A DNA stretch of 64,000 bases, from positions 1,892,110 to 1,956,109 of the forward strand of contig NZ_LNYG01000013.1 of NCBI RefSeq assembly GCF_001467745.1, in the 5' to 3' direction. The notes beneath the pieces were generated by a model, which searched no databases, was not told the DNA's origin, and saw only the letters and a program-made list of their open reading frames with translations. Shown here piece by piece: positions 4,851 through 59,902 of the stretch; positions within the stretch are counted from its first letter, which is position 1; each line of letters opens with the position of its first letter. Source of the stretch: Legionella jamestowniensis. GTDB taxonomy: Bacteria > Pseudomonadota > Gammaproteobacteria > Legionellales > Legionellaceae. The position numbers were made by a program, and so were the translations under genes.

Positions 4851-6065
4851 ATGTCTCGTTATAATAGGGTTGACAAAGCATATAACTTTCTTATTAATAA
4901 GGAAAAATCTGGTCTATCTTTTTCTATTGAAGAGTTGGCAGATTATGTAGGTTGGAAACCTCAATCATGCAAAACTTATCTTTCAAAACGCTGGTTCCAA
5001 TACATCCAAAAGAAAGAGCACAGGTATGAGGTAATAGGTATTTCCTTCCTTAGTCAAGAGGACTTTCGTAAATTAAACTGTCAAAATTTGGAGAGAGTGA
5101 GCGATTCTTCAGAAAGAGGGATGTTAATTAAGAAAGCTAAGGAGTTTACTCTTATTGCTGTTGCAACCTATAACAATCCTTTTATTGAACTGAAGACCCA
5201 TGGTTTCATTGTCAATATAGTTATTGCCTTTACTGCCCTATTTCACGCCATTTTTGACAAAAACTCAATTGATTTTCTTTATAAAGATAAGCACGGAAAT
5301 CAAATGTTCAAAGATGGTGAAGCTAAGGCTTGGGAACTGAGTAAATGTTGCGAACACTATTGGAGTGGGCAATCGCCAGAAAAGTCTAATTTAAAATTCT
5401 TAATTGGCTTGCGTAACAAAATTGAGCATAGAAGTTTACCTTACTTGGATCTTATAGTCGCTGGATATTGTCAAGCTGCACTGTTAAATTTTGAAGAAAT
5501 ATTAGTTAATGAATTTGGTAATAAACATGCACTAATGGCTAATTTAGCTATGGCAATGCAAATGACTCGAGTCGCTAATGAACAACAAACTGAAGCAATG
5601 AAATGCTTCCAAAGAGAAAATTATAAAGTCATAAGAGAGTATATGCAGACTTTTAGTGATGACTTGAGTAATGAAATTATCGAAAGTCAAAAATATCGTC
5701 TAAATGTATTTCTTGTGCCAAAGATAGGTTCCCGAGCTAGTACGACAGATTTAGCTATAGAGTTTGTAAATGCAACTAATCTAGATGAAGAAGAGCTAAA
5801 AGCTTACAATCACGCCATCGCTTTGATCAAAGGTGTGGAATCACAATATAAGTTGAGGCCAAGAAAAGTTGTTGAGCAAGTTAAAATAAAAATCCCAGAA
5901 TTTAATATGGCTCATCATACTAAACTTTGGAAGAAGTATAAGGCAAGACCTTCCAAAAAAATGCCTAAATATAAAGGCAAATATTCTGGATATGTTGAGG
6001 GATTTGATGGTTATTTATATTCGCAAGATTGGGTAAACTTCATAATTGAAGAATTAAGCCAATAA
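4851..6065 (+). CDS. DUF3644-family protein with HEPN-like motif
   Basis: This 404-residue protein resembles DUF3644. The N-terminus (about residues 1-60) looks like a helix-turn-helix (FSIEELADYVGWKPQSCKTY). The central part has the family's LKTHGFIVNIVIAFTALFHA stretch and, near residue 187, GLRNKIEHRS. The R-N-K-x-E-H pattern fits the RX4-6H motif of HEPN RNases, which are common in defence and toxin systems. DUF3644 genes often lie in defence islands; an RNase role is inference. It stands alone here, with no obvious partner on either side, and no clear ribosome-binding site could be seen. Confidence 0.65.
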   Translation: MSRYNRVDKAYNFLINKEKSGLSFSIEELADYVGWKPQSCKTYLSKRWFQYIQKKEHRYEVIGISFLSQEDFRKLNCQNLERVSDSSERGMLIKKAKEFTLIAVATYNNPFIELKTHGFIVNIVIAFTALFHAIFDKNSIDFLYKDKHGNQMFKDGEAKAWELSKCCEHYWSGQSPEKSNLKFLIGLRNKIEHRSLPYLDLIVAGYCQAALLNFEEILVNEFGNKHALMANLAMAMQMTRVANEQQTEAMKCFQRENYKVIREYMQTFSDDLSNEIIESQKYRLNVFLVPKIGSRASTTDLAIEFVNATNLDEEELKAYNHAIALIKGVESQYKLRPRKVVEQVKIKIPEFNMAHHTKLWKKYKARPSKKMPKYKGKYSGYVEGFDGYLYSQDWVNFIIEELSQ

Positions 6066-6856: not shown

Positions 6857-7360
6857 TTATTTACTTACAGAAATAGATGCTCGACCGCTTGCATTTGAGG
6901 ACGTGTCTCCTGAAATCGTTGTTGTTGCCTCCAGTGTATAATTTCCGGCATAAGAAAACGAACAGGTTAGATAACTATTTGAGCTGTTTGAGTAAGAGCC
7001 TCCCTTGTAAACACCCACGGTCGTTTGATCATGAAAACAATAGGTAGAATTAGCACATAATTTAATATTTACAGTATAGGTTTGATAGCTTCCTGAGGTG
7101 TTATTTATAGAGAAGCCATGTGAGCCATTCGTATAAATATTGCTGTTCACTGTTCCTCTAGCATTATCTGCGCGTGCGCTAGTTGAAGCGGACGAAAAAT
7201 AAGTATTGGGGTTATTTTCTATATGGCCTGCAATTATAGTGATTTTATTATCAGGGCCACTGAACCAAGAATGATGCTCTAATATTTCAGCATTCTTAAG
7301 TTCCAATGCATAACTAGATGACGTAGCAACAAGTGCTCCGATTAAGACTAATTTTTTCAT
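6857..7360 (-). CDS. Secreted Ser/Thr/Asn-rich protein of unknown function
   Basis: This 167-residue protein starts with a clear Sec signal peptide (MKKLVLIGALVATSSSYA). The mature part is rich in Ser, Thr, Asn and Gly and has three cysteines (LCANSTYCFH and YLTCSF), suggesting a beta-rich extracytoplasmic domain. It shares the N-terminal block ILEHxxxxxGxD with the small protein downstream. I do not recognise the family. An AAGGAAAA site precedes the ATG. It could be a surface or secreted factor, but nothing ties it to the conjugation genes. Confidence 0.6.
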   Translation of the reverse strand: MKKLVLIGALVATSSSYALELKNAEILEHHSWFSGPDNKITIIAGHIENNPNTYFSSASTSARADNARGTVNSNIYTNGSHGFSINNTSGSYQTYTVNIKLCANSTYCFHDQTTVGVYKGGSYSNSSNSYLTCSFSYAGNYTLEATTTISGDTSSNASGRASISVSK

Positions 7361-7446
7361 TATTTTTCCTTTTATTGGACGTCGCTGTATAATCTTTTGT
7401 TACTTAAAATTTGGCTGGATTTTTAACGCCATCAATTCGCACTATT

Positions 7447-8091
7447 TTAACTAAATATTAACTGGGTGTTTATCCAAGTATAACTGTCATCCTTTTCTAC
7501 ACTGAAAGGCTTTATAGAAACCCACCATAAGCTATTTTTATTTTTTATGCACGAATATTTTCCTATTTTCCCCTCACGTATAGCTTTTCTGTAATCTTGG
7601 GCTTCAAATGAGTTATTGGTGACATTGGCATTATGTTTCAGTCTTAAATATTCGTTTTGTGCTGCACTTAAGGCATAATCCTGTTTATTAACATTATAAG
7701 TCTCAGATCCAATCATATTATTAATAGTAATTTGAGACGGCGCAGATGCCTTGGCATTTTTATAGGTGTAAAACACGGCTTGTTTTATATCGTCTTCAGA
7801 AATATATAAACCCGGAGGTGGATTATAATAAGCCTGTTTAATTACTAAATTTCCTCCAAGAGCCTGGCAGAAATTGTTTATATCATCATATGGTCTTTCT
7901 ATTCTACTGGCGAGCAATCGAATATTGATAGAATTTTTGGATGTTTCTTTATTATAAAAGCCTGTAGCGCGACCAAGCTGATCAGTAAAGCGCTCTTTCA
8001 TAAAGTCGGCTAATGAAGTGTTTTTATATTTTAGAGCAGCTTCTTTCGATAAAGGCCTTTGGCAACCGGCACATATTTGGTTATCTATCAT
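7447..8091 (-). CDS. Hypothetical protein next to attL
   Basis: A 214-residue protein I do not recognise. Its N-terminus has CAGCQRPL, a short CxxC. In the same frame upstream there is an open, hydrophobic, Cys-containing stretch (FISSVISSC) but no usable start codon, so the ORF may be the remainder of a lipoprotein-like gene whose beginning was lost. It ends about 190 bases from attL and is the last gene left of the ICE. The C-terminal part (SLWWVSIKPFSVEKDDSYTW) suggests an envelope protein, but this is a guess. Confidence 0.4.
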   Translation of the reverse strand: MIDNQICAGCQRPLSKEAALKYKNTSLADFMKERFTDQLGRATGFYNKETSKNSINIRLLASRIERPYDDINNFCQALGGNLVIKQAYYNPPPGLYISEDDIKQAVFYTYKNAKASAPSQITINNMIGSETYNVNKQDYALSAAQNEYLRLKHNANVTNNSFEAQDYRKAIREGKIGKYSCIKNKNSLWWVSIKPFSVEKDDSYTWINTQLIFS

Positions 8092-8274
8092 TGTGCATGA
8101 AGATATAACAGAGCTTATGAAAGGGCAAGAAACAATTTTTGAAGTTTACTATTTACAGAATACATATTTAACAATCCAAGCTGTCTAAAATTAAATTTAC
8201 TTCCTTAAAGTGTCTACATTGCGTCTACATGGTTTTTTTGAATTTCCTAAAACTACACGTAACTACTTGATTTT

Positions 8275-8321
8275 ATTGGTGGGCCCACTAGGACTTGAAC
8301 CTAGGACCAACGGATTATGAG
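8275..8321. other. attL: ICE left attachment site (attL), tRNA 3' fragment
   Basis: These 47 bases are identical, in the same orientation, to 59824-59870, which forms the 3' half of the intact tRNA gene at the other end. The repeat includes the tRNA CCA end and runs to the anticodon. Beyond it the sequences differ, so this is a displaced tRNA fragment left by integration, not a working tRNA. Together the two copies delimit a 51.6-kb element. Confidence 0.9.
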
Positions 8322-8394
8322 CCCCTCAATCTAAAAATAAGTTATTGATTTTATTACAATATTTATCGCGGGAATCCACTACAAATGTCCTACG

Positions 8395-8435
8395 ATGTAT
8401 AACAGTGTCGTACTCAAATACGCAAATTCCCCACA
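8395..8435. repeat. 41-bp direct repeat, copy 1
   Basis: Forty of 41 bases match 14440-14480 in the same orientation (ATGTATAAC, one mismatch, then GTGTCGTACTCAAATACG...CCCCACA). The two copies bracket the microcin-like gene cluster and the IS remnant. The surrounding stretch 8322-8857 holds no gene I can support, only AT-rich upstream DNA of the peptide gene. Confidence 0.7.
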
Positions 8436-8857
8436 GTCAAATTATGAGGTCTGTTTATCAATCATGGTATAATTTCCCTCAATGAATCAGTCGATGATGT
8501 AAAATCCCCCTGCTTTCGTTAAAAGCTCAGTCTATTTCGCGTTAGATTAGTGATTAATTCGCATACTCAAATTACGAAATGTCCATTTAGAGACTCCCTT
8601 TTAGAAAATCATTTGTGTTTGTCAAACCCAAAACAATTTTAATGTTTATATATGGGGCACTAGGTTTAAATTGATAATATATTTCAATGTGTTGTAATAT
8701 ACTTCGGGTAGGTATAGCAATGGTTATAACTACAAAACTTAAGACTTGATTAGGATATCCCTCGGTTATACTAAGCAAACAAATTAGAAAATAGGATAAT
8801 TTAAATTATTCTTACTAAGTTAATCATTACTATGTATTCAACAAAATGGAGTTATTT

Positions 8858-8956
8858 ATGAAAACATCTACAAAAACCAAAACATTGACCATCTCTAAAG
8901 TTTCAAACGCGACTAAAATTGCTACGAAAGCATCTTTAATCACCGCTGTACCTTAG
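8858..8956 (+). CDS. Candidate microcin-C-like precursor peptide (32 aa)
   Basis: A 32-codon ORF with a good ribosome-binding site (ATGGAG, 8 bases before ATG) lies just upstream of the MccB-like gene, where mccA lies in microcin C operons. The peptide is Lys/Thr/Ser-rich, starts MKTSTKTKTLTI and ends KASLITAVP; it has no acidic residues, signal peptide or cysteine. Known MccA peptides end in Asn, to which MccB attaches a nucleotide. This one ends in Pro, so either the chemistry differs or this is not the substrate. Being short it was found by position and ribosome-binding site, not by similarity. Confidence 0.65.
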   Translation: MKTSTKTKTLTISKVSNATKIATKASLITAVP

Positions 8957-8965
8957 TCTTTATAA

Positions 8966-9028
8966 TCTTAGCTGTAATTTCGCGTTAATTTTAAAATATT
9001 ATTGTTAATGATTCGGTTGCAGCTAAGA
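8966..9028. promoter_or_regulatory. Long-range inverted repeat between peptide and mccB-like gene
   Basis: TCTTAGCTG (8966-8974) is exactly complementary to CAGCTAAGA (9020-9028), leaving a 45-base AT-rich loop. In microcin C operons a structure between mccA and mccB limits read-through and gives much more peptide message than enzyme message. A similar role is plausible here, but there is no T-run. Confidence 0.35.
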
Positions 9029-9050
9029 CTAGCAGAACGCATGGATTTAT

Positions 9051-10115
9051 ATGAAACAGATTAAGTTAAATGATAATCTTTATTTACAACCATATGAAAG
9101 TCAAATAATCATCCACCTACCTGATGATCAATCACTTAAAATAGAAGAAAGAGAGCTTTTCATCGATTTACTCTACGAAATTAAAAGATCAGGATTAAAT
9201 GGCTTGGAGGAGGTCTATAAACAAATCACACTCAACCATGATTTATCTAGAGAAGAGTTTAATGATCTTATCGAAACTCTAAGTGATAATAATATTATAA
9301 AATTTAAAACCGATTATACTCATTCATTATCTGACAAAGAATTAATAAAATATGATCGTCAGATTAAGAGCTTTGCTACACTGCAAAGCAATAATATTGA
9401 CGATGCGATTCATTTTCAGGAGAAAATAAAAAGTTCCAGTGTAGGAATTCTGGGTGTTGGTGGTGTTGGCTCTTATGTATCTTATGGCTTAGCTTCAATG
9501 GGTATTGGCAAATTAACGCTTATTGATCATGATCATATAGAACTTAGTAATACTGCTAGACAAATGCTTTATAATGAAAATGATATAGGTAAGCAGAAAC
9601 TTGAAGTAGCTCAACAAAAATTAAACCTAGTTAATCCCTCCATGGACATTGTTACAATAAATAAAAGAATTACAAGTTCATTGGATTTAGAACCTCACCT
9701 AGATAATCTCGATATTTTAATACTGTGTGCTGATACTCCCCGGGGAAAAATCGTATATATGGTTGACGATGCCTGCCAAAATAAGGGATGTCCCTTTATT
9801 TTTGGTTTGCCATCTTTCAACCAGATTACATGCGGTCCTTTAATTATACCGAATAAAACAAGAAGCTATTCAGAAATTTTTCCAGTGCCAATAGAAATTG
9901 ATATAGCAGATATTTCTGTTTCAGAAAAAGAAAAAACTAACTTAATTAATTCTGGACTCATAGCAACCATTATTGATCCCTACAATGCTATAGCAGGAAA
10001 ATTAGTTGCTCTTGAAGTGATTAAATTTTTAACAGGGTTTCTCCCTTGTCAATTAATCGATCGTGTATTTAATTTTGATACTAATACGCTAAGTTCAAGC
10101 ATTACTGAGGTGTAA
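9051..10115 (+). CDS. MccB-like E1/ThiF-fold peptide adenylating enzyme
   Basis: This 354-residue protein matches MccB in length and plan. Residues 1-100 form the position of the peptide-binding domain; then YDRQIKSF (101-108) and the E1 Rossmann core GILGVGGVGS (132-141), LIDHDHIELSNTARQ (157-171), the Lys of DIGKQK (178-183) and CADTPRG (226-232), whose Asp matches the catalytic, Mg-binding Asp of E1-like enzymes. It should bind ATP and activate the C-terminus of a peptide. The zinc CxxC pairs common in ThiF/MoeB are missing and no ThiS/MoaD-like partner is nearby, which argues against thiamine or molybdopterin synthesis. The start codon ATG has only a weak upstream GGA. The stop is one base before the TTG start of the next gene. 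Confidence 0.8.
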   Translation: MKQIKLNDNLYLQPYESQIIIHLPDDQSLKIEERELFIDLLYEIKRSGLNGLEEVYKQITLNHDLSREEFNDLIETLSDNNIIKFKTDYTHSLSDKELIKYDRQIKSFATLQSNNIDDAIHFQEKIKSSSVGILGVGGVGSYVSYGLASMGIGKLTLIDHDHIELSNTARQMLYNENDIGKQKLEVAQQKLNLVNPSMDIVTINKRITSSLDLEPHLDNLDILILCADTPRGKIVYMVDDACQNKGCPFIFGLPSFNQITCGPLIIPNKTRSYSEIFPVPIEIDIADISVSEKEKTNLINSGLIATIIDPYNAIAGKLVALEVIKFLTGFLPCQLIDRVFNFDTNTLSSSITEV

Positions 10116-10116
10116 T

Positions 10117-11163
10117 TTGTTTTTATCATCTGTCAACTTAAACGAGCTAATCCAACAACTAAACTCGAATAATCGACCAATTAATTTATTTGAAATATTA
10201 TCATTGCTTGAAGCTCAAACTAATATTGTGCTTGATGGCGAGTGGTGCCTTTTCAAAGAAAATAATGATAAAGCAATTTTCAATCAAATTATTCAAGATC
10301 ATGGTCCCAATATTAATTTGCAAAATGCTTTGAACTATTTGTTAGAGTCGGAATCAGTCTATTCTAACCTTATATCTGACTACTTGGTAAAATATCGAGG
10401 TTCTTCTAATAGGGGAAATAATATTCTAGGCCAGTATGGTTATAATCTACTAAGTCTGAAAGAAGAAACCTGCCTTCATAGAGAGCAAGAGCAAGAGCTC
10501 ATAAAAATTTGCCTTACTCGAAATTATAAGAATAATGTCATGTTAATTGGCAGTTCAGGCGTCGGGAAAACATTCTTAATATCCTCCATAGCTCGTCTTA
10601 TGAATCTAGATATTTACTACGTAGATATTAGTAGTATATTGTCAGGATCCAAATATCGTGGCGAATTTGAAAAAAAATTTCATACCCTTCTGAATGAAGC
10701 ATTAAAAAGCAAAACAACCTTGTTCTTCGATGAAGCACATACAATATTAAACACTGGTAATTCTGATGGTGGAATATCTGGCGCAGACATACTAAAACCT
10801 TATTTGATGAATAGTGATTTTCGCATGATTGGAGCCACAACTATTGATGAGGCAGAAGCCTTTACTAAGGACAAAGCATTTTCAAGACGATTCAATTTTC
10901 TAAAACTCGAAGAGTTACCAATAGAAAAAACTAAAGATATTATTAAACGAAAATACACTCAAACATTGAATTGGGATCAGAAAACATTTAATAAAATATT
11001 TACCTATCTTGATAGTGTCTTTCTAAATAGAAATTATCCTGATAAGGCGCTGGACTTTTTTGATTTTTATTTTTCTGGTGAAAGGCTTTCTTTTTTTAAT
11101 ATTAACAATGATATAGAAAAGGTCCTTAATTTATTTACAAAAATGAATACGATAATCGCTTAA
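10117..11163 (+). CDS. Single-ring Clp/Hsp100-type AAA+ ATPase in RiPP cluster
   Basis: A 348-residue protein that resembles only the first ATPase ring (D1) of ClpA/ClpB. Its features are YKNNVMLIGSSGVGKT (Walker A, 137-152), the pore-loop region GSKYRGEFEKKF (177-188), LFFDEAHTI (Walker B, 202-210), GATTIDEA (239-246) and the arginine-finger region FSRRF (255-259). The second ring, the ClpP-binding loop and the middle domain are absent; residues 1-110 are unrelated to the Clp N-domain as far as I can tell. The start is a TTG immediately after the mccB-like stop codon, so the two are translationally coupled. Classical mcc operons lack such a gene. It may remodel the enzyme-peptide complex or drive maturation; this is inference. 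Confidence 0.75.
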   Translation: MFLSSVNLNELIQQLNSNNRPINLFEILSLLEAQTNIVLDGEWCLFKENNDKAIFNQIIQDHGPNINLQNALNYLLESESVYSNLISDYLVKYRGSSNRGNNILGQYGYNLLSLKEETCLHREQEQELIKICLTRNYKNNVMLIGSSGVGKTFLISSIARLMNLDIYYVDISSILSGSKYRGEFEKKFHTLLNEALKSKTTLFFDEAHTILNTGNSDGGISGADILKPYLMNSDFRMIGATTIDEAEAFTKDKAFSRRFNFLKLEELPIEKTKDIIKRKYTQTLNWDQKTFNKIFTYLDSVFLNRNYPDKALDFFDFYFSGERLSFFNINNDIEKVLNLFTKMNTIIA

Positions 11164-11192
11164 AACTCACTCATTAATCATTAAGGTAGAAA

Positions 11193-12410
11193 ATGCCCTT
11201 ATTCTATAGATTATTAACTTATACCATTTTATTTTCTTGTATAAGAATGCTTATAGGTGGATATGCCTCCTTGTATTTAATGCAACATGGGTTTTCTATA
11301 GCTGATATATCTTTTTTAAAAGCATTTCAGAGTCTAGTGATTGTTCTGATTCAAATACCGATAGGATATCTAATTGATAATCGTAGTAATAGATATCCAT
11401 TTATTCTAATTTCTATTTTTTTTGCTGCAATTTGGATGTTTCTAACTGCTGTGGGTAATAATTCCATTTATTTTTTCATAGCAGAATTATTTAATGCACT
11501 ATCTTTGGCAATTTTTAATGCTGTTATGCTTCCTATTTTGGTTGAAACTTATACTTATGAAACAGGTAAAAATGATTACAACTATACGTTGGGAAAGTTT
11601 TTTAAGTATCAGAACTTATTGATGGCGATATCTGTAATACTTGGAAGTGGTTTTGTAAGGATTGATTCAAGATATGTCTGGTTAGTTTCAGCATTTTTAC
11701 TGTTTAGCACAGCTATCTTTTCAATTTTGTCAAAAGATATAAAGAAATTTAATTTCTTGCCCCCATCAAATTCAGAAAGAAAAGTGAAAAAACATTTTAG
11801 ACAAATAATTGAGTTAATAAAAACTGAAAATCTCATGATTTTACTTCTCGTTAATATTGCTCTTACTACAGTTTTTCAAATATTAGCTCAGTTTTGGCAG
11901 GTAATTATTTATTCTTACTTAGATGAAAATACATCATATGCTTTAACTTATGGACTTATATTCTCTGCAATTTTATTGCTACAAGCTGTGGGTTCCCATC
12001 TAGCTGAGAAGAGGAGCTCGTTGAAATTAAGTCTGCTGAGTATGTTGCTTTTTGTTGGAAATACCGCTTATCTAATCTTTTTTAACAACTATTTTATATT
12101 TAAAGTTATTCCTGTTATTTTATTTATAATGTCGTTTATTTTATTTAAATATCCATCGATAATCATTAGCGCGATACTTCATAAAAATATAAATAATAAA
12201 GTAAGGGCAACATTCGATTCAATTATAAGCATGTTAACCATGGTGATTTCCACCATCGTATTTTATTTGATAGGAGTTTTGCTTAATAAATATGGTAATA
12301 ATGTAATTATGCTATCATTAGGTTCTTTATCTTTATTAAGTCTCTTACTTACTTCTGTATATTTATTAAAAAATAAATATACATTAAAAAATAGCTTAGC
12401 AGCAGCTTAG
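11193..12410 (+). CDS. MFS exporter, MccC-like position
   Basis: A 405-residue membrane protein with about 12 hydrophobic segments and the MFS loop-2/3 pattern GYLIDNRSNRYP (residues 60-71). It is the third gene behind the peptide, in the place of the MccC exporter of microcin C operons, so it probably exports the modified peptide and contributes to self-protection. It starts 30 bases after the ATPase gene (AAGGTAGAAA precedes ATG) and belongs to the same operon. The DNA is strongly AT-rich compared with the core genes at the right end, which suggests foreign origin. Substrate is inferred from context only. Confidence 0.75.
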   Translation: MPLFYRLLTYTILFSCIRMLIGGYASLYLMQHGFSIADISFLKAFQSLVIVLIQIPIGYLIDNRSNRYPFILISIFFAAIWMFLTAVGNNSIYFFIAELFNALSLAIFNAVMLPILVETYTYETGKNDYNYTLGKFFKYQNLLMAISVILGSGFVRIDSRYVWLVSAFLLFSTAIFSILSKDIKKFNFLPPSNSERKVKKHFRQIIELIKTENLMILLLVNIALTTVFQILAQFWQVIIYSYLDENTSYALTYGLIFSAILLLQAVGSHLAEKRSSLKLSLLSMLLFVGNTAYLIFFNNYFIFKVIPVILFIMSFILFKYPSIIISAILHKNINNKVRATFDSIISMLTMVISTIVFYLIGVLLNKYGNNVIMLSLGSLSLLSLLLTSVYLLKNKYTLKNSLAAA

Positions 12411-12416
12411 TAAGTA

Positions 12417-13475
12417 TTATAGAACAGCTGTCTCTAATAAGCTTACTGTTTCTTCAAATGGATTTATCTCAGCGAGACACCCATATGGCATTATCCACAT
12501 GGGATCGGAGTGGCCAAAATCCATGTTTATTACTATTGAGGCTCTAGGAATTTCAAACTCATCAAAAACTTCTAAAATTGCTTTGCCATACTCTTTAAAC
12601 TGAGGAAAAAAAACATGAGATCCACCTGGTTTACTGAACAAAACTCCTGCTATTTTTGATAATATCCCTTGAGCAGCTAAATTCCTCAAAATTCTCTTTA
12701 AAGCCAACGGTGTTATTCCCTCCTCAGAGGTTTCAAGGAATAGTATACATCCACTCCAGATATCTAAGGTTGGCCAGATTTCGGTGCCATTAATAAACTG
12801 AAGAACTTCAATACATCCTCCTAGCAAACGTCCTTGAACAATTTTCTGGGTATTACCAATAAATTCCCATTTTTCCGTTTTCTGTAATTTCCTTTTTATG
12901 TTTTGATTTGATGGATCCTTCCAATCTAAATACTCCTTAGTCCAACCCTCAATTGGAGTAGGTATGTTCCCAATAATATTGTCTGTAAATAAAGTTTGCT
13001 TAATACCTTGAACTGTATAGTCATGCATTTCAACATTTTCGGCAAAGCCTGTCATCACTGACGTCCCATAAAAAGTAGCTAGTCCAGCTTTCAGACAAAT
13101 AAAATGTATCACGGTGCTATCAGAGTACCCTAAAACAACTTTTGGATTCTTTCGAATAATCTCAAAATTGATATAAGGTAATAATCTTATAGCATCGTCA
13201 CCACCGATAGTTGAGAAAATTCCTTTAATCGTAGGATCTAAAAATGCCTGCATGAGATCATCAGCACGAGCTTTAGGATTTTGATAAACCCATTCAGAAT
13301 CAGATAAGGCGTGAGGCATTTCAACTACTTCTAAACCAAATACATTTTGAAGACGCTTCTTACCTATTTCATAACGGTATGGAAAAGTACCGGGCCCACC
13401 CCAGGAAGCGCTTATCACAGCAATTTTATCACCAGCACTCAATTTTTTTGGTAAGATTAACTTTTGCATTTCCAC
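12417..13475 (-). CDS. MccF-like S66 serine carboxypeptidase (self-immunity)
   Basis: A 352-residue peptidase of the LD-carboxypeptidase/MccF family. The triad is visible: Ser118 in VLGYSDS, Glu248 in LFLETSEE and His322 in MDFGHSDP. A Trp-containing loop (GWTKEYLDWKDP, 177-188) lies where MccF uses a Trp to stack on the nucleobase, which favours MccF over a cell-wall-recycling LdcA. MccF cleaves the bond between the toxic aminoacyl part and the nucleotide of microcin C, giving immunity. The gene faces the peptide operon, six bases from the exporter's stop. Its own promoter would be right of 13475. Assignment to the family is sure; the immunity role is inferred from context. Confidence 0.8.
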   Translation of the reverse strand: MEMQKLILPKKLSAGDKIAVISASWGGPGTFPYRYEIGKKRLQNVFGLEVVEMPHALSDSEWVYQNPKARADDLMQAFLDPTIKGIFSTIGGDDAIRLLPYINFEIIRKNPKVVLGYSDSTVIHFICLKAGLATFYGTSVMTGFAENVEMHDYTVQGIKQTLFTDNIIGNIPTPIEGWTKEYLDWKDPSNQNIKRKLQKTEKWEFIGNTQKIVQGRLLGGCIEVLQFINGTEIWPTLDIWSGCILFLETSEEGITPLALKRILRNLAAQGILSKIAGVLFSKPGGSHVFFPQFKEYGKAILEVFDEFEIPRASIVINMDFGHSDPMWIMPYGCLAEINPFEETVSLLETAVL

Positions 13476-13563
13476 GCCCCTGTAACTTGTAAGTATTTTA
13501 ATACAGTGTCGCTAATTTATAGCTTATACAGCAATAATCTATAAATTAACTAATATTAAATAC

Positions 13564-14439
13564 TGATCTTGCCTCGGAAAAACGGACACCCCACTAAGCA
13601 ACTTTTTTAACTTCAAACTCATCTGGCGATCGATAGTCTAATCTCGCGTGAAGTCGTTTTCGATTATAGTAAATTTCTATATATTCGAATATATGATTTT
13701 TAGCGACTGACCGAGACACAAATTTTGCTGCAACAGATTCGGTGCTACTGGAAGTTGATGATTGCTATTGGTGGTCGCCTTAAATTTTTTCGACGCTTTG
13801 GCACGCCATCCTTGTTGGCGCATAACCCTCGCAACGCGCTGCTTGCCAACATGCACGCCTTGTTGATGTAAGCGTTTAGTTATTCGGGGTGCTCCTGCAC
13901 GAGATTTTTCCTCATCAAATAGGGCTTTTATCTTTTTAGTAAGCTCTAAATTTTTCTCTGCCTGCCTTGATGGCTTACGGTTAAGCCATGCATAGTATCC
14001 GCTAGCTGAGACGCTCAGCAAGCTACACATTAACTGAACTTTGAATTGATTCGATGCTTCCTTGATCATGGCGTACCTCACTTGGATTCCTTGGCGAAGT
14101 ACGCTGACACTTTTTTTAGGAATGCATTTTCTTCGGCAAGCCGTGAGCACTCACGTCGCAAACGTGCCATATCAGCCTGTTGGAGTTTTTGATTTTCAAG
14201 TGTGTCACCACCTTGGCGTTTCTTCGTCCGCCAACCATATAAAATGGCTTCCGGTATTCCAAGATCTATAGCAACCTGCCTGACACCATCTTTTTCTGCT
14301 CGCTCAACTGCTTGATCTTTAAACTGAGGACTATATTTTTTCTTTCTCTTTGTATTTCTGGTTTAGTATTGTTCATTATTCACCTCTGGTTAAGATTTTA
14401 CTCTCTTAACAAGGTGTCCATCAATTCAAGGCAAGATCA
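13564..14439 (-). mobile_element. IS3-family insertion sequence, internally deleted
   Basis: The ends carry inverted repeats: TGATCTTGCCT...GGACACC at 13564 and its complement ending at 14439. OrfA (read from about 14378 to 14086) has the HTH and leucine-zipper style tail LRRECSRLAEENAFLKKVS but is out of frame near its start. OrfB keeps the N-terminal HTH_21 part (ASGYYAWLNRKPS) and the extreme C-terminus ([19 protein letters not shown]) at 13605-13690, but the DDE catalytic core between them is gone. At 876 bases it is roughly 0.3-0.4 kb shorter than a usual IS3 element. It cannot move by itself. Confidence 0.85.
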
Positions 14440-14480
14440 ATGTATAACTGTGTCGTACTCAAATACGCAAATTCCCCACA
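14440..14480. repeat. 41-bp direct repeat, copy 2
   Basis: Second copy of the repeat at 8395-8435 (one mismatch), starting directly at the outer edge of the IS remnant. It continues into ATGG-TTTT--GGGGT, which resembles the sequence beside attR (59764-59783: CACAATGGTTTTTGAGGGGT). It therefore looks like an old element end. Confidence 0.7.
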
Positions 14481-14499
14481 ATGGATTTTACGGGGTTAT

Positions 14500-14546
14500 T
14501 TTTAATATTAAAACCCATTTAGTGTTTCTGGGTTTTAATATTAAAA
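14500..14546. repeat. 18-bp perfect stem hairpin
   Basis: TTTTAATATTAAAACCCA (14500-14517) pairs perfectly with TGGGTTTTAATATTAAAA (14529-14546) around an 11-base loop. It lies in the gene-free part (14481-14830) between the IS remnant and the AbiE operon. It could be a bidirectional terminator or the remains of a small inverted-repeat element. Confidence 0.5.
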
Positions 14547-14830
14547 TTATAAGTACGAAACTAAATAGATATTATCTGCTAGCAAATATTTGTATTGCTT
14601 TTTCGCCAAGCAAATATTTAGCCATAGTTTCACTTCTTGTGTCCATAGTAAACCAATAGTGAGATTGTCATCTTCCTGTTAATGAGCGATAGTGGAGCCA
14701 ATTTAGATTAAAGCTTAATGATAATTCATTTAAGATTTACCACGCACTGCGTGGTGAATTTCAGAGTTAAAATAAACAAGATATCCTGCTCTAGTTTTTT
14801 TTCTTGTTCTGATAAAATGAAACGTAATTT

Positions 14831-14878
14831 TGATACAAATATTCGTTATTTATTTGTAAGTAACGAAATTATGTATCA
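14831..14878. promoter_or_regulatory. Inverted-repeat operator of AbiE operon 2
   Basis: An imperfect 18-base inverted repeat: TGATACAAATATTCGTTA (14831-14848) against TAACGAAATTATGTATCA (14861-14878), with perfect outer (TGATAC/GTATCA) and inner (TTCGTTA/TAACGAA) parts. It ends 10 bases before the AbiEi start, as expected for AbiEi autorepression. Confidence 0.7.
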
Positions 14879-14888
14879 TAATTTAAAT

Positions 14889-15497
14889 ATGAAGACAAAG
14901 GATAGCTATAAACAAATAGTACTCCAAATGGCTAGAAAAACGGGTGTAATCAAAATGTCCGATCTAACCAAACAGGGGATAACTAGAGCGACCGTTTCAA
15001 GACTTGTTAACGAAAACAAACTTGAAAAACTTGCTCCCGGACTATATTGCCTACCCGAGACTAAGTTTTCTGAAAAGGAAAGCCTGATTATTATAGCAAG
15101 CCGAGTACCTCAAGCCGTGTTTTGTCTGCTAACTGCTTTGCAGATCCATGATCTAACAACACAACTACCTCGAAAAGTATGGATCGCTATGCCAAAGGGA
15201 AGTCATGTGCCAAAAATGGATTATCCGCCGCTAAAAATGGTGCAATATTCAGATGAAGCCTTTAGTGAAGGAATTGAAATTATAGAATCAGATAATATTA
15301 AACTAAGGGTGTATAAATGTGCCAAGACAATTGCAGATTGTTTCAAACATCGCAATAAAATTGGACTTGATGTGGCCATTGAAGCGCTCAAAGAGGCTTA
15401 TACAAAAAATAAAGTAACAGTTGATGAACTATGGCATTATGCGAAAATTTGTCGCGTTGCAAACGTAATGCGTCCTTATATTGAGGCAATTCAATGA
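14889..15497 (+). CDS. abiEi: AbiEi-family antitoxin/autorepressor
   Basis: A 202-residue protein with the AbiEi layout: an N-terminal winged helix (GVIKMSDLTKQGITRATVSRL, then LVNENKLEKLAPGLYCLPE) and a C-terminal domain with VWIAMPKGSHVPK and IKLRVYKCAKTIADCFKHRNKIGLDVAIEAL. It binds its operator and neutralises the AbiEii toxin indirectly (type IV system). I place the start at 14889 (MKTKDSYKQ); an in-frame ATG at 14718 lies upstream of the operator and would add a 57-residue extension unlike the family. The stop overlaps the toxin start by four bases (ATGA). Confidence 0.85.
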   Translation: MKTKDSYKQIVLQMARKTGVIKMSDLTKQGITRATVSRLVNENKLEKLAPGLYCLPETKFSEKESLIIIASRVPQAVFCLLTALQIHDLTTQLPRKVWIAMPKGSHVPKMDYPPLKMVQYSDEAFSEGIEIIESDNIKLRVYKCAKTIADCFKHRNKIGLDVAIEALKEAYTKNKVTVDELWHYAKICRVANVMRPYIEAIQ

Positions 15498-16345
15498 CAA
15501 AAAATATTGGTGAGTCTGTGCGCTCACGTTTGAAGAATATAGCTATAAAAGAAGGGTCTGATTTTAACGCGATATTGACTCGTTACGGACTAGAACGTTT
15601 GTTATATCGGATTGGAGAATCAGAATATTCTAATCAGTTCTTGTTGAAGGGTGCTTTACTTTTTAACCTATGGTATGACATGCCACATCGACCCACTAAA
15701 GATATTGATTTATTGGGGTTTGGTGATAATGATCTAGCGTATATTAAACAAACGTTTAGTAAAATCTGCAGCATCTCCGCAGATGATGGAATAAACTTTT
15801 TATCTGAATCAGTGACGGTAGACACTATAAAAAAAGATGGTGGGTATACTGGAGCAAGAGTTGAATTATTTGGGGAATTAGCTAAAGCAAAGATTAAAAT
15901 ACAAATTGATATTGGTTATGGTGATGCAGTTACACCTGGTCCAATAGATGCCCATTATCCCGTTCTCCTTAATGATCTTCCTGCTCCTAAGATCCGTACT
16001 TATCCAATTTATACGGTAATCGCAGAAAAATTGCATGCTATTGCATTATTGGGCATGGCTAATAGTCGGTTAAAAGACTACTTGGATCTTTATGTGTTAT
16101 TAAGTAATGAGCAGTTAGATAATCAAGTCTTGGCTAAAGCTATACAGGCTACATTTACTCGTCGAGGTATGGCTATTCCTGAAGAGCTGCCTATTGGTCT
16201 GACTGATGAGTTTGCTAATGATCCAAGCAGAGAGTCGATGTGGAAAGCCTTTTTGAGAAAAAATGAACTAGAGCAGAAACCATTAACTGAAGTTATTGCT
16301 GTGATCAGAAATTTGATTCAAGTGCCATATTCTTTGGCAAAGTAA
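15494..16345 (+). CDS. abiEii: AbiEii nucleotidyltransferase toxin
   Basis: A 283-residue AbiEii-family nucleotidyltransferase. Residues 46-75 hold the nucleotide-binding signature: FLLKGALLFNLW, then RPTKDIDLLGFG, in which the DxD aspartates bind metal. Later motifs KIQIDIGYGDAVTPGP and TVIAEKLHAIALLG...RLKDYLDLYVLL are also typical. Such toxins modify tRNA acceptor ends and cause abortive infection or stasis. Here the pair probably stabilises the ICE or guards against phage. ATGA overlap with the antitoxin shows translational coupling. The gene looks intact. Confidence 0.9.
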   Translation: MTKNIGESVRSRLKNIAIKEGSDFNAILTRYGLERLLYRIGESEYSNQFLLKGALLFNLWYDMPHRPTKDIDLLGFGDNDLAYIKQTFSKICSISADDGINFLSESVTVDTIKKDGGYTGARVELFGELAKAKIKIQIDIGYGDAVTPGPIDAHYPVLLNDLPAPKIRTYPIYTVIAEKLHAIALLGMANSRLKDYLDLYVLLSNEQLDNQVLAKAIQATFTRRGMAIPEELPIGLTDEFANDPSRESMWKAFLRKNELEQKPLTEVIAVIRNLIQVPYSLAK

Positions 16346-20911: not shown

Positions 20912-21265
20912 ATGGACGATAAGCTTAAAACACCCACCAGAAAAAATGGTCGCCATCTTCGTGTACCTGTCTTGCCTTCTGAAGAGATTCAAATTAAATC
21001 GAATGCAGCCACTGCCGGCCTTTCAATTGCTGAATACTTAAGACGGATAAGTCTTGGTTATCAAATTCAAAGTAGTGTTGATAAAGATCATATACTGCAG
21101 CTAGCCAAAATTAATGGGGACTTAGGACGGCTTGGTGGACTGTTAAAACTATGGTTGACTCAGGATAAACGCGTTGCGCATTTTGACCTCCAAACAGTAA
21201 AAACATTATTAAATCGTATTCAAACCATCCAGGATGCAATGTTGGAAGTGGTGAAAAAACTATGA
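20912..21265 (+). CDS. traJ: TraJ-like relaxosome protein
   Basis: A 117-residue protein with a ribbon-helix-helix-like N-terminus (HLRVPVLPSEEIQIKSNAAT) and AGLSIAEYLRR, typical of TraJ/MobC accessory proteins that bind next to nic and recruit the relaxase. AAGAGG precedes the ATG. It overlaps traI by four bases (ATGA). Divergent from traK across oriT, the RP4 order. Confidence 0.8.
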   Translation: MDDKLKTPTRKNGRHLRVPVLPSEEIQIKSNAATAGLSIAEYLRRISLGYQIQSSVDKDHILQLAKINGDLGRLGGLLKLWLTQDKRVAHFDLQTVKTLLNRIQTIQDAMLEVVKKL

Positions 21266-23127
21266 TTATTCGCCATATCCCTATGAAGAAAACTAGACTT
21301 AGTAGTTTTTCGGGTCTTGTTCAATACCTGTGTAATCAACAAAACAAACAGGAGAGAGTGGGAAAAGTCAGATTATCAAACTGTAATAGCCTGGATCCCA
21401 TTTGGGCTGTTCAGGAGGTATTAGCAACACAAGCTAAAAACCAAAGAGCCACTGGAGATAAAACCTACCATATGCTTATTTCTTTTGCTCCAGGAGAAAA
21501 CCTTTCCGCTCAAGTTTTACGTGAAATTGAAGATAGAGTGGCATTGTCGATTGGATTTAAAGAACACCAAAGAATCTCAGTCGTTCATCATGACACAGAC
21601 AATCTTCATATTCATGTTGCGATTAATAAAATTCACCCTCAAACCTTTAATATGATTGAACCTTACAGGGCATATAAGACCTTTGCTGAGGTTGCATCCC
21701 AGCTTGAAATTGAATTAGGTCTTCAAATAACTAATCATCGAACTCGAAAAAACCATTCGGAAAATCTTGCAGACGATATGGAGCGCCATTCAGGAGTTGA
21801 AAGCTTGATTAATTGGATGAAGCGTCACTGTAAAGAAAAAATTGAGGCAGCTAGAAACTGGAAGGAGATTCATAGTATTTTGGCAGAACATGGGTTGATT
21901 ATACGTTCTAAAGCCAATGGTTTTGTTTTCTGCAATGCGCAAGGGATGACTGTTAAAGCTAGTTCTATTTCCAGAAGCTTTTCTAAAAAAAATCTCGAAT
22001 CCAAGCTAGGTGACTTCGTACCATCCTACTCAGAGGACGGTGCACCTGCTTCTAATGTTTACCGTTATGAACCACTAAATAAAAAAGTACTTGGTACGGC
22101 CCTTTATGCCAAATATCTGCATGAAAAGTCACACAATAAACACTTCATTTCAGACAAACTTAAAAACTTGCGAGAGGCCAGAGCCAAACTTATTGAAAAG
22201 GCTAAAAAGCGAGGTCGAATTAAAAGAGCGGCTTTGAAATTAATGAACCTTCCTAAAGTACAGAAAAAGCTCCTATATAGTCACATAAACAAAACGCTGC
22301 TTAATGAAATTGATAACATAAGGAAAAATTACACCAAAGAACGTAGCCGGTTATTAGATTCCTACCAAAATAAAACCTGGGCTGATTGGCTGAAACAAAA
22401 AGCACAAAGTGGTGACCAGGATGCCTTAGTGGCAATGCGTTATAGTAATCGTAAAAATAAGCATGATTACACCATTTCAGGTGCAGACTCATTTTTTACA
22501 CCTTTAAATTTTGGACAAATCGATTCGATTACTAAAGAAGGCACTGAGATTTATAAAAAAGATAACAGTGTTATTAGAGACAATGGAAAGGAAATTATCA
22601 TTTCTAAAGGCGGGTCTATTCCTACGCTTAAAAGAGCCTTGGAAATGGCAAGGCAGCGCTATGGTGACTGTATTTGTGTGAATGGGTCTCCATTATTTAA
22701 AAAGATCATCTTGCAAATTGTTATTCAATATCAAATGCCAATCACTTTTGCTGATTTGGATTTCGAACATCAACGTCAAAAACTAATTTTGGAACAGGAG
22801 AAATTTCATGATCAATCAAGATCAAACCGACAAAGCCATCGAGGAAGAACTTCAGGAGGCCATGAGGCTGCTGGAACAGCCACTGGAAATAGAAGGGGCA
22901 GTACAAAGCCCCACTCTTTCAGCATTAGACAAGGCTCGCCAGCCAAAGATCACCACAGCTTGCGAAACTTGTCCAAATGCGATCTGGTTCAGCTCATCGG
23001 AGGAGGTCAAGTGCTATTGCCGGATAATGCACATGATCACCTGGAGCGGAAAGGATTCAAATTTGATAACCATGTGCGATGGAATGTTTTTGGATTAAAG
23101 CAGAAAGGGAAAAATCGAAAACCATAA
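21262..23127 (+). CDS. traI: TraI relaxase (MOBP, IncP type)
   Basis: A 621-residue relaxase. The catalytic tyrosine is Tyr22 (LVQYLCNQ) and the metal-binding motif is HHDTDNLHIHVAINKIHP with His116 and His118, the same numbering as RP4 TraI. It nicks oriT and stays bound to the 5' end to pilot the strand. An LPD7-like domain follows (about residues 400-510, FTPLNFGQIDSITKEGTEIY ... GGSIPTLKRALEMARQRYGD). The C-terminus is low-complexity (RSNRQSHRGRTSGGHEAAG) because it shares its DNA with a second reading frame. Shorter than RP4 TraI (732). Confidence 0.9.
   Translation: MIIRHIPMKKTRLSSFSGLVQYLCNQQNKQERVGKVRLSNCNSLDPIWAVQEVLATQAKNQRATGDKTYHMLISFAPGENLSAQVLREIEDRVALSIGFKEHQRISVVHHDTDNLHIHVAINKIHPQTFNMIEPYRAYKTFAEVASQLEIELGLQITNHRTRKNHSENLADDMERHSGVESLINWMKRHCKEKIEAARNWKEIHSILAEHGLIIRSKANGFVFCNAQGMTVKASSISRSFSKKNLESKLGDFVPSYSEDGAPASNVYRYEPLNKKVLGTALYAKYLHEKSHNKHFISDKLKNLREARAKLIEKAKKRGRIKRAALKLMNLPKVQKKLLYSHINKTLLNEIDNIRKNYTKERSRLLDSYQNKTWADWLKQKAQSGDQDALVAMRYSNRKNKHDYTISGADSFFTPLNFGQIDSITKEGTEIYKKDNSVIRDNGKEIIISKGGSIPTLKRALEMARQRYGDCICVNGSPLFKKIILQIVIQYQMPITFADLDFEHQRQKLILEQEKFHDQSRSNRQSHRGRTSGGHEAAGTATGNRRGSTKPHSFSIRQGSPAKDHHSLRNLSKCDLVQLIGGGQVLLPDNAHDHLERKGFKFDNHVRWNVFGLKQKGKNRKP
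22808..23098 (+). CDS. TraH-like protein encoded inside traI in another frame
   Basis: A 96-residue ORF lies entirely within the 3' end of traI, in the next frame. It starts after a good ribosome-binding site (GGAACAGGAG, about 10 bases before ATG) and its product is acidic at first (DQTDKAIEEELQEAMRLLEQP) with a Cys cluster later (ACETCPNAIW...KCYCRIMH). In RP4, traH also lies inside traI in another frame and encodes a small acidic relaxosome-stabilising protein. The cysteine pattern CxxCPNAxW with CYC looks selected rather than accidental. Direct evidence of translation is lacking. Confidence 0.65.
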   Translation: MINQDQTDKAIEEELQEAMRLLEQPLEIEGAVQSPTLSALDKARQPKITTACETCPNAIWFSSSEEVKCYCRIMHMITWSGKDSNLITMCDGMFLD

Positions 23128-41328: not shown

Positions 41329-44184
41329 CTATTCCTCATCAAACTCAGAACTACTAAACCGCAGTACATTACAATTTTCTGTTATCGTGCGCTGAAGTGC
41401 TTCATCAAAACCATCCTTAGACTTAGCTTGAATTTCTACGGATATTGAAACTTCAACACCAAGTTTGGCAGTGAACTGCTGCACCACTTCGTCAACGATG
41501 GTGGCGAATTCCATTTTGGCTTTCACAGGGTCTAGCTCAATATTGCCGTAAAACTGTCTTTTTACTGCAGTTTGGATAGGTGGTGGCATTGATGTAGATT
41601 TACTCGGTAACTGTTGTGGATGAAAACCACTAGTTGTTCCTGCTACACCGGTGGTCAAAGGAGTCGGTTTGCCTCCGGTAGATTGTATAAGCTCGGGTTG
41701 GGGTACGGGTTTAGTACGCTCGCGATATTCAGCGGCGGCTTCACGCTCAATCAGCAATGAAGATTCGTCCAATGTTGGCATGGAGTCACAACCAAAAATA
41801 AAACCTAAATAACGGTCGCCATCTTTTCCGGAGGCAAAGCCAAAGTAATCCTCACTATTCAAACCTGAGGTGATGGCATTTTTGAATACCTGATCATTGA
41901 CCAGGCGAGGTAAGTAAAGATAATGGCAGCTGTCTTGCCATACTTTTAATGCGCTCACGTCTTTGACGCCATCTTTAAAATACCATTTCTGTAGAGTGTT
42001 ACGCAGGTGAATAGGACTCCACTCAGAAGTCAACCACTCTTCTTCACGTAGCGTATTTTCAATTTCAGCGATCAGATTTTGTGTCGCAGGTGATACAGAA
42101 ACTGCCTCCCATGTTAATTCTGGTTTACCACGCACGAAATCTTCAACTGGGCAGATAATCCACTTATATGTTTCGCGTACAATTTGCTGTAAGCTTTGTT
42201 CAGCCACTTCCGCATTGCGTATAGCTTGTTTAGACAGCGATACCGTTAAGTCCAGTTTTCCGTCTGTTACATCTGACACTATGCTTTTCCAAGCAAGGTA
42301 TGTTTTTCCCGCATCATTTAAACGACTGACAACATCATAATCTGCGGCAAAGAAAATAAGGCGGTTTTGTTTTTGTCGAGGCTGATCACCACGATTGCGA
42401 AGTATTTCTTCAGCAGCTTCGTAAGTAAGTCTTGCATCACCACGGCTATAGGCTGCGCTGGGTGGCAACACAACTAAACGTGGGCCAAGGGCATAGTCGT
42501 CCGGTATATCAATGGATGGCGTGAATACATGAATCCCGCCAAAACAGTGATTACGGCCAAATATACGAGCGACACTCTCCTTTAATAAAGGGTGCAATTC
42601 TTGTTGCTGATTTATATTTTGTTTGCGACTTTCCATCTCACGACGCAGGTTTGGTCGTGTGTCCAAATAGTAACGTTCTTGCTCTGAGTATAAGTAGTGC
42701 AAACGGTCGCGTAAGCGTTTTAGCACATCCTCAAAAACGCCGATTGTTTGCCGAGGTTGGACACAACCCAATAAGATGTGTTCTTGGTTGAGTCCTTTAA
42801 CACCTTGTGCTGCATTTGAAGGCGCACTACCCAAAAAAATGGTTCGCATTGCACGACGTGCCGCTTGCACACTACCAAATCGCGTATCATGTCCATCAAT
42901 GTCAGCAGGTTCTGAACGCGGCCCATCCACTTCTTTTTCCAGCACGGGTTCCCATCCTTGAGGCAGGTAGTGAATGCTCTTGTTACGCACATTGCTGTCA
43001 TCTAGGGGGATAGAGCCAGGCATAATCAATGCATCTTTATTGTCTGAATTCCAAAGGCGATGAATGACAATCGCCATGTACTGCAAGACACCACGGGTGC
43101 GTTGGAACTTATCAAGTGTCGACCAATCTTCATATAGACGATCAAACACCTCAGGATGAATAGGATAAGATTGACAAAGACGTTCAAAGTAAACATTTGA
43201 TTGAGTTTCTAGGGGAAATTTATCGCTGTGGGTGCGATAAAAATCTGAAAACTGACGGCTAATGCCCTCGATTTCTGCTCTCTCACCGGCTGATTCAAAT
43301 AACCGTCTACGTACAATCTCAAAGGCCTCTGTGCTGGCAACAGGTTTCCAAATTGACTCAACACGGGCAAAGTATTTTTCTAAAGATTCCAGCGAACGCT
43401 GACCCATTATACCCCCTACTTCCAACTCGGATTCTGGCAATGAAGCTAAAAGAATGGCGTTAGGTACGGTTTTCATCGCTTCAGTGAGCGCCTGAATAAA
43501 TGAAATATTGCTATCAAAGGTACCGGCTTTAAATTGTTTACCCAATTCCAGCTGACGAATGAAAGCAACTAACTCGTCAATCAAAATAACGCAAGGCGCG
43601 GCTTTTTCAATCAGCTGGCGTAACACCTCTTTTCCAGGAGAGGTACCATCAGCATCGCTTTGTGCAACCATGGCGTAACCTTCTTCACCTAACAATTGCC
43701 ATGCGAGTTCGCCCCACAAGGTATTCACTACAAGTTTCTGGTTTCCTGTGCCATGTTGTTGTGGCTGGCTAGGGGATAGTTTGATGCCATCGATCACCGC
43801 TACTTTGGCGCTGGGCAAATCTTGAATACCAGCTTTATCTAATATTGGTGGAATGCCTAGCAGTCTATCGGTGCTCACTTGGCGAGATGCCAAGTGTAAA
43901 ACTGCTAACATGGTATGGGTTTTACCACCACCAAAGGCAGTTTGTAGCTGAATGACCGGGTCGCCGCCTTGGCCCACTAAGCGCTGGGCCACCGAAATCA
44001 ACAATAAACGCATACCTTCGGTAATAAAGGTACGGGAGAAGAATTTCTCGGCATCTTGGTATTCATCTGTCGCGGTACCAGAAGCCACTTGAGAAATATC
44101 TGCTGCAAACTCAGATTGCTTAAAAGTGCCTTCTAATACGTCTTTGTGAGGCCGGGCAATTTCACGCCATGGTTTTAAACTCAT
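41329..44184 (-). CDS. DUF499 AAA+ ATPase of defence-type operon
   Basis: A 951-residue DUF499 protein. Walker A is [19 protein letters not shown] (residues 83-101 or so) and Walker B is [15 protein letters not shown]. The rest has the family's mixed helical body; a Pro/Ser/Thr-rich linker (near residue 850) precedes a small C-terminal domain. DUF499 ATPases accompany DUF1156 DNA methylases in phage-defence islands and may act as the motor or switch of the system. Last gene of a four-gene operon; starts 11 bases after the methylase stop. Confidence 0.8.
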
Positions 44185-44195
44185 TCTTTTTTCCC

Positions 44196-47054: not shown

Positions 47055-47062
47055 TATCTGCC

Positions 47063-59823: not shown

Positions 59824-59902
<79 letters not shown>

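What the first reader, a model, noticed from the sequence alone, without database searches (positions are those of the whole stretch)
8858..13475. Microcin-C-like peptide-nucleotide pathway on a Legionella ICE
A 32-codon peptide gene, an MccB-like adenylating enzyme, a Clp-type ATPase, an MFS exporter and a facing MccF-like peptidase lie together. Seen: the E1 core (GVGGVG, CADTP) in a 354-residue protein, and Ser118/Glu248/His322 plus a Trp loop in the peptidase. Known: MccA-MccB-MccC with MccF makes, exports and gives immunity to microcin C. The peptide ends in AVP, not Asn, and the extra ATPase is not part of classical mcc operons, so the product should differ. Inference: a toxin aimed at competing bacteria or used for ICE maintenance.
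Basis: partly seen in the sequence, partly recalled or inferred. Interest (0 to 1): 0.92.

Follow-up and report, generated by a model that had tools for sequence, protein, structure and literature searches.

The report
Peptide-making operon with Clp-like motor
A mobile DNA element in a Legionella-family bacterium carries a small operon that seems to make, chemically alter, export and neutralise a short peptide, a relative of the antibiotic microcin C but with a longer, differently ended peptide and an extra ATP-driven motor protein that recurs in distant bacteria.

Summary
Observation confirmed. Five genes lie where described: a 32-codon peptide, an MccB-like RRE-ThiF enzyme, a ClpA/B-type AAA ATPase, an MFS exporter and a converging S66 (MccF-type) peptidase, about 0.5 kb inside the left att site of a roughly 51.5-kb ICE. 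Two other Legionellaceae carry the same five genes; the peptide stays 32 aa under purifying selection. The ThiF belongs to a clade of 15 (support 100/97), 14 with the AAA gene alongside, spread over four phyla. All 15 have a 23-35-aa precursor ORF heading the operon; 13 of 13 folded have a hairpin after it. The microcin-C comparison holds for architecture, enzyme fold and probable immunity, not for the precursor: no Shine-Dalgarno-led heptapeptide was found and the peptide ends in Pro, which cannot supply microcin C's Asn nitrogen. Best reading: a ThiF-dependent RiPP pathway in which another nucleophile captures the activated C-terminus; Ser/Thr at position -4 (9 of 12 representatives; found post hoc) suggests a four-residue ring, as IndF makes. 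Product, activity and the AAA motor's role are unknown. A 2025 review already mentions 'ClpA homologs' in microcin-C-type clusters, so this is a new variant of a known kind.

The parts
8858..8956 (+). precursor peptide gene, 32 aa, ends TAVP; first gene of the operon
   Evidence: ORF and SD; 32-aa orthologues in L036 and L037, pN/pS 0.18-0.33
8966..9028 (+). long hairpin between precursor and enzyme gene (possible attenuator or RNA-stability element)
   Evidence: MFE -24.4 kcal/mol for 8957-9050, z -3.15, 0 of 200 shuffles as good; hairpins in all 13 loci folded; not called by the simple terminator scan
9051..10115 (+). RRE-ThiF adenylyltransferase, MccB/PaaA type, 354 aa
10117..11163 (+). stand-alone ClpA/ClpB first-AAA-domain ATPase, 348 aa, TTG start, with helical N-terminal region
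11193..12410 (+). MFS exporter, 405 aa
   Evidence: PF07690 2.2e-16; similar to a Bartonella cluster MFS 1.6e-36, to E. coli MccC only 1e-6
12417..13475 (-). S66 (MccF-type) serine peptidase, probable self-immunity
   Evidence: PF02016/PF17676; Ba3275 structure 4e-105, MccF structures 8e-36 to 5e-31; triad conserved
8395..8435 (.). 41-nt direct repeat, left copy, bounding the cassette
   Evidence: 98% identical copy at 14440-14480
14440..14480 (.). 41-nt direct repeat, right copy
8276..8322 (.). left att site of the ICE (copy of the tRNA-Met 3' end)
   Evidence: exact 40-mers shared with 59824-59870; 96% over 54 nt, 8271-8324
59824..59870 (.). right att site, overlapping tRNA-Met 59826-59902 (-), next to integrase 58606-59733

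Best explanation
The locus is a complete RiPP operon of the ThiF-like adenylyltransferase (TLAT) kind. The 32-aa peptide is made from the head of the operon, probably in excess over the enzyme. Its basic, beta-prone N-terminal part binds the RRE of the MccB-like enzyme. The enzyme adenylates the C-terminal carboxylate (Pro32), and an internal nucleophile captures it; the best candidate is the hydroxyl of Thr29 at position -4, giving a four-residue C-terminal lactone. The trimmed product leaves through the MFS pump. The S66 peptidase protects the producer by hydrolysing the C-terminal linkage. The ClpA/B-type AAA ring uses ATP on the peptide or the enzyme-peptide complex, for example to pull product off the enzyme, present it for trimming, or destroy what stays inside. 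The most likely use is inhibition of competing bacteria. Shown by computation: genes, conservation, operon order, enzyme fold, linkage of AAA and ThiF, selection on the peptide. Inferred: C-terminal activation (from family chemistry), leader binding, the ring, peptidase role, AAA role, bioactivity.
Against: Position -4 is Ala in Exiguobacterium and Lactococcus and Gly in Shimazuella; the column was noticed before it was tested, and representatives are few and not fully independent. C-termini vary widely (Pro, Asn, Arg, Ser, Phe), so one chemistry for all is doubtful. No leader peptidase gene was recognised in the cluster. An MccF-type S66 peptidase is best known for cleaving peptide-nucleotides, which favours a nucleotide product. 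No product, activity or expression is known. Precursor ORFs were chosen by position next to the first gene; some loci hold other SD-led short ORFs further away. The AAA protein's first 97 residues were not tied to any known domain. Fluviispira has the AAA but no MFS among the ORFs listed beside it.
Confidence: 0.66

Rival explanations
1. A true microcin C relative: the enzyme attaches a nucleotide to the peptide C-terminus, the peptide is only a carrier, and the S66 peptidase removes the nucleotide part.
For: The clade groups with MccB in the tree (90/75, weak, midpoint root); S66 converges on the operon end as in the E. coli mcc plasmid; MccF-type triad and Trp residues; three relatives end in Asn (Treponema and C. 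polysaccharolyticum SVCN, Pantoea SLAN).
Against: [quoted passage not shown] 12 of 15 peptides here do not end in Asn and the Legionellaceae ones end in Pro. Precursors are 23-35 aa, against 7 in most microcin C operons (PMC6495379, passages). No SD-led ORF of 4-15 codons upstream in the three Legionellaceae loci; the control found MRTGNAN. The MccB CxxC pair is absent in this branch.
Confidence: 0.2
2. The product is a secreted signal (pheromone-like) peptide rather than a toxin.
For: Enterofaecin, another ThiF-made peptide, is suspected to be a quorum-sensing effector (PMC12250964, passage). Four-residue rings recall cyclic signal peptides (recalled).
Against: I saw no receptor or regulator gene shared by the clusters; genes that could give self-protection are frequent (S66 in Legionellaceae, GNAT in Treponema, GNAT and ATP-grasp in Priestia), though none was tested.
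Confidence: 0.15
3. A Pup-like tagging system: the E1-like enzyme joins the 32-aa peptide by its C-terminus to proteins, and the Clp-type ring threads tagged proteins.
For: E1-like activation plus an ATPase with the Clp pore loop KYRG; short conserved peptide.
Against: An exporter is present in 13 of 14 loci; no E2 or ligase gene recognised; no second AAA domain; peptide C-termini not conserved across the clade; Bartonella AAA has Leu and Fluviispira His at the pore aromatic.
Confidence: 0.04
4. The ThiF gene serves sulfur-carrier or cofactor synthesis.
For: PF00899 family membership.
Against: MccB/PaaA fold including the N-domain; the genome has a second ThiF-family gene that groups with MoeB-like rows (labels mine); no ThiS/MoaD match among 10 neighbouring proteins scanned.
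Confidence: 0.01

Closest known systems
Microcin C (mccABCDEF, E. coli)
   Same: RRE-ThiF enzyme, MFS exporter, converging S66 immunity peptidase, precursor at operon head
   Different: precursor 32 aa ending in Pro instead of 7 aa ending in Asn; added ClpA/B-type AAA; no MccD/MccE; ThiF lacks the two CxxC motifs
Microcin-C-type clusters with 'ClpA homologs' (one sentence in review PMC12250964, citing Bantysh 2014 and Travin 2021, neither held)
   Same: a ClpA-like gene in a microcin-C-type cluster, read there as a possible self-immunity factor
   Different: which clusters are meant could not be checked; long precursors and clade-wide linkage are not described in the parts read
IndF/IndA (S. 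pneumoniae, PMC12150305)
   Same: ThiF-like RRE enzyme acting on a leader-core precursor's C-terminus; ring between position -4 and the C-terminus
   Different: nucleophile there is Trp indole, here at most Ser/Thr; peptidase IndP is M16; no AAA mentioned in the parts read
Pantocin A (PaaPABC)
   Different: PaaA works on an internal Glu pair, with an oxygenase PaaB (review passages); none here
ClpB/ClpA first nucleotide-binding domain
   Same: fold and ATPase motifs, pore loop
   Different: no second AAA domain; dedicated to a peptide operon

Membership tests
ThiF-like adenylyltransferase RiPPs (TLAT) | ThiF domain fused to N-terminal RRE | tested here: met
   MccB (317-332 residues aligned) and PaaA (315) align from residues 2 and 6 of the model; N-terminus is four short strands then three helices. 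RRE role is by analogy.
ThiF-like adenylyltransferase RiPPs (TLAT) | short conserved precursor gene beside the enzyme | tested here: met
   15 of 15 loci examined
ThiF-like adenylyltransferase RiPPs (TLAT) | a carboxylate of the precursor is adenylated | not testable with these tools
   ATP-site residues conserved; needs enzymology
Microcin C family | precursor ends in Asn, usually 7 aa | tested here: not met
   32 aa ending in Pro in 3 of 3 Legionellaceae loci; no SD-led ORF of 4-15 codons upstream (control 127)
Microcin C family | nucleotide joined by N-P bond | not testable with these tools
   needs mass spectrometry
Microcin C family | MFS exporter (MccC) | tested here: met
   MFS present; only weakly like E. 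coli MccC, 1e-6
Microcin C family | MccF-type S66 immunity peptidase | tested here: met
   sequence and triad; activity not tested
IndF-type C-terminal cyclases | Trp at position -4 of the core | tested here: not met
   no Trp in any of the 15 precursors; Thr or Ser at -4 in 12 of 15 rows
Clp/Hsp100 ATPases | AAA core with Walker A/B, pore loop, Arg fingers | tested here: met
Clp/Hsp100 ATPases | two AAA domains (class I) | tested here: not met
   348 aa, one AAA domain
ICE | integrase at tRNA, relaxase, T4SS, att repeats | tested here: met

The most novel reading that the evidence does not exclude
A distinct RiPP class, spread across at least four phyla by horizontal transfer, in which a stand-alone Clp-type ATPase ring is a standing partner of the ThiF synthetase, feeding or stripping the long precursor, and the product is a four-residue C-terminal Ser/Thr macrolactone instead of a peptide-nucleotide.
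Probability: 0.25. Interest if true: 0.82.

Novelty: new variant of a known kind. Interest (0 to 1): 0.62.

Why it matters
If right, it extends ThiF-RiPP chemistry to long, non-Asn precursors, ties a protein-threading motor to peptide maturation, self-protection or export, and gives a compact marker (ThiF next to a one-ring Clp ATPase) with which to mine for such peptides. It would also show an ICE of a Legionella-family bacterium carrying a bacteriocin-like operon as cargo, with a probable immunity gene attached.

Tried and rejected
Cofactor role: rejected. Heptapeptide MccA hidden upstream: no SD-led ORF of 4-15 codons in three loci; in the E. coli control MRTGNAN was one of two SD-led ORFs found. 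Viral copies: none in viral contigs with A3 or A1; 0 of 16 matching phage records covered 80% of the query. PADLOC gave only partial E1 and AAA matches for the ThiF and AAA proteins. No Rfam family in 8200-14500. The AAA search in plasmids listed 25 of 2057 records: Exiguobacterium, one ClpB and 23 ClpL. Kin searches returned as clade members only the query genomes plus one Bartonellaceae genome with an apparently broken copy (L107); in some of these searches only the best 5 to 13 candidates a genome were scored, and one search used a stricter E-value, so misses are possible. Of the 49 loci, 25 were examined for an AAA neighbour, 2 are the Legionellaceae contigs read as L036 and L037, and 22 weaker ones were not examined. 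VIA-align did not tie the AAA protein's residues 1-97 to a known domain. Promoter and terminator scans were no better than shuffles.
Full report
What is there. The peptide is MKTSTKTKTLTISKVSNATKIATKASLITAVP (8858-8956), with GGAG upstream; a longer 36-aa start at 8846 is possible. The enzyme (9051-10115) is a ThiF-family protein. The AAA protein starts with TTG, one base after the ThiF stop codon. The MFS follows, and the S66 peptidase converges on it, with six bases between the two stop codons.

Mobile context. The window holds a relaxase (21262-23127), a coupling protein, VirB4-like and TrbI-like T4SS genes and a tyrosine integrase (58606-59733) next to tRNA-Met (59826-59902), with rpoD-like and dnaG-like genes beyond. 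A copy of the tRNA 3' end lies at 8276 (exact 40-mers; 96% over 54 nt). This defines an element of about 51.5 kb whose first cargo, about 0.5 kb inside, is this operon. A third att-like copy lies about 2.1 kb before the window, so a second element or remnant may sit in tandem. The operon is 31.7% GC against 39.2% for the element. A 41-nt direct repeat (98%) at 8395 and 14440 brackets the operon plus an IS3 remnant.

Orthologues. Among 143 genomes of the window's family searched, its own included, two others carry the close enzyme (77% identity). Both keep all five genes with the converging peptidase, beside different neighbours. Peptides: MKTTTKTKTLTVSKISGATKIALKASLITAVP and MKTATKTKTLTISKIAGVTKVALKASLVTVLP. 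pN/pS is 0.18, 0.33 and 0.24 for the three pairs, so the ORF behaves as a gene.

Wider family. Plasmids gave Priestia, Exiguobacterium and Pantoea ananatis (these were also the only three records at E 1e-15 with the Lactococcus enzyme). The one scan of genome contigs returned 49 loci, of which I examined 25 for an AAA neighbour. In the maximum-likelihood tree of 42 ThiF-type proteins, 14 rows with a neighbouring AAA gene plus Shimazuella (no AAA found) form a clade with support 100/97; the label needs two changes on the tree. Members: Legionellaceae (3), Fluviispira, Treponema, C. polysaccharolyticum, another Clostridia, Priestia, Exiguobacterium, Lactococcus, Pantoea, Bartonella (3), Shimazuella. 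Exiguobacterium (plasmid) and Lactococcus enzymes are 61.5% identical, in line with transfer. The clade looks rare: the only clade member among 397, 295, 42, 195, 58 and 398 sampled genomes was the query genome itself; (151 genomes) there was one more, apparently broken. Searches also returned weaker TLATs in 16, 2 and 2 genomes (21 loci); 14 of these 21 loci were put in the tree and all 14 fall outside the clade. Some searches scored only the best few candidates a genome, so these are lower bounds. No AAA match appeared in these 21 loci (flanks up to 1.5 kb), nor in 9 further loci outside the clade.

Precursors. In all 15 clade loci examined a 23-35-aa ORF heads the operon whatever the order of the other genes. 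Fluviispira's was found by eye and lacks a clear SD site; the other 14 have an SD-like site. They were chosen by position next to the first gene. C-termini: Pro in 6 (Legionellaceae 3, Fluviispira, Priestia, Clostridia L043), Asn in 3, Arg in 2, Ser in 3, Phe in 1. Ser/Thr stands at -4 in 12 of 15 rows, 9 of 12 representatives (permutation P 0.0002 at that column, 0.002 for any column), and 7 of 9 stricter representatives (0.0012 and 0.010). The column was noticed first and tested after. Exceptions: Ala in Exiguobacterium and Lactococcus, Gly in Shimazuella. The RNA between precursor and next gene folds into a hairpin in 13 of 13 loci folded (L047 and L048 not folded); z -1.7 to -6.3, with no equal shuffle in 9 of 13. 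This would suit a precursor made in excess over its enzyme. The simple terminator scan did not call the one in the window.

The peptidase. It is far closer to MccF-type S66 structures (4e-105 to an 'MccC family protein Ba3275', 8e-36 to 5e-31 to entries named MccF) than to the muramoyltetrapeptide carboxypeptidase model (48.9 bits against a cut-off of 378). Ser118, Glu248, His322, Trp178 and Trp185 align with E. coli MccF; the catalytic and base-stacking roles are recalled. In the E. coli plasmid the S66 gene converges on the operon end in the same way. No match to it was found in the other clade loci searched. There, a methyltransferase (Exiguobacterium and Lactococcus, 56% identical), a GNAT (Treponema) or a GNAT and an ATP-grasp ligase (Priestia) lie nearby; their roles are unknown.

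Mechanism. ThiF-like RiPP enzymes adenylate a carboxylate, and the outcome depends on the nucleophile (PMC12150305, parts 1-2 of 3 read). [quoted passage not shown] with Asn changed to Gly the activated peptide can be caught by added thiols (PMC13255007, introduction read). A C-terminal Pro has no such side chain, so the peptide here should be caught by another group. IndF joins the residue at -4 to the C-terminus. Ser/Thr at -4 in most of this clade therefore suggests a four-residue lactone. That is an inference; the relatives ending in Asn may instead make nucleotide products. The AAA motor may strip or feed the long precursor, or clear it from the cell; a 2025 review says that ClpA homologs occur in some microcin-C-type clusters and may degrade toxic precursor (PMC12250964, section 2.4 read).

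Literature seen. PMC12250964: abstract, outline, section 2.4, passages, two of three parts of the reference list, figure legends. PMC12150305: parts 1 and 2 of 3. PMC13255007: one passage and the introduction. PMC6495379, PMC7157772, PMC9239234 and PMC7136475: passages. Bantysh 2014, Travin 2021 and PMC11256085 are not held. Searches, seen as listings, showed no paper on this clade beyond the review's sentence; that is not proof of absence.

Verdict. A conserved, mobile operon of RiPP type; microcin-C-like in plan, not a microcin C by its precursor; new variant of a known kind.

Noticed in passing
window 41329-50602 (-): HmaA, HmaB and HmaC (full-length PADLOC matches) form a complete-looking defence module on the ICE.
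   Followed up: partly
window 14718-16345 and 168-1148: AbiEi/AbiEii-type toxin-antitoxin pair just right of the cassette, and another AbiEi-like gene at the window's left end.
   Followed up: no
window 8395-8435 and 14440-14480: 41-nt direct repeat, 98% identical, bracketing the five-gene cassette plus an IS3 remnant; could be a second recombination site.
   Followed up: partly
L121, about 2.1 kb before window start: Third copy of the tRNA-Met 3' end, hinting at a tandem element or remnant left of the ICE.
   Followed up: partly
window 4851-6065: DUF3644 protein matching the candidate defence family PDC-S19 (E 2e-92).
   Followed up: no
L107 (Bartonellaceae genome G932): ThiF and AAA genes of this clade apparently broken into several frames; described only.
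   Followed up: no
L047 6935-8121: MFS gene of a Bartonella cluster is split into two frames, and its AAA frame is short; could be decay or a sequencing fault.
   Followed up: no
L044 5672-6927: Shimazuella has a 26-aa precursor and ThiF of this clade but no AAA match within about 5.8 kb on either side.
   Followed up: partly
window 6857-8091 (-): Two genes (167 and 214 aa) left of the att site without a Pfam match above cut-off.
   Followed up: no
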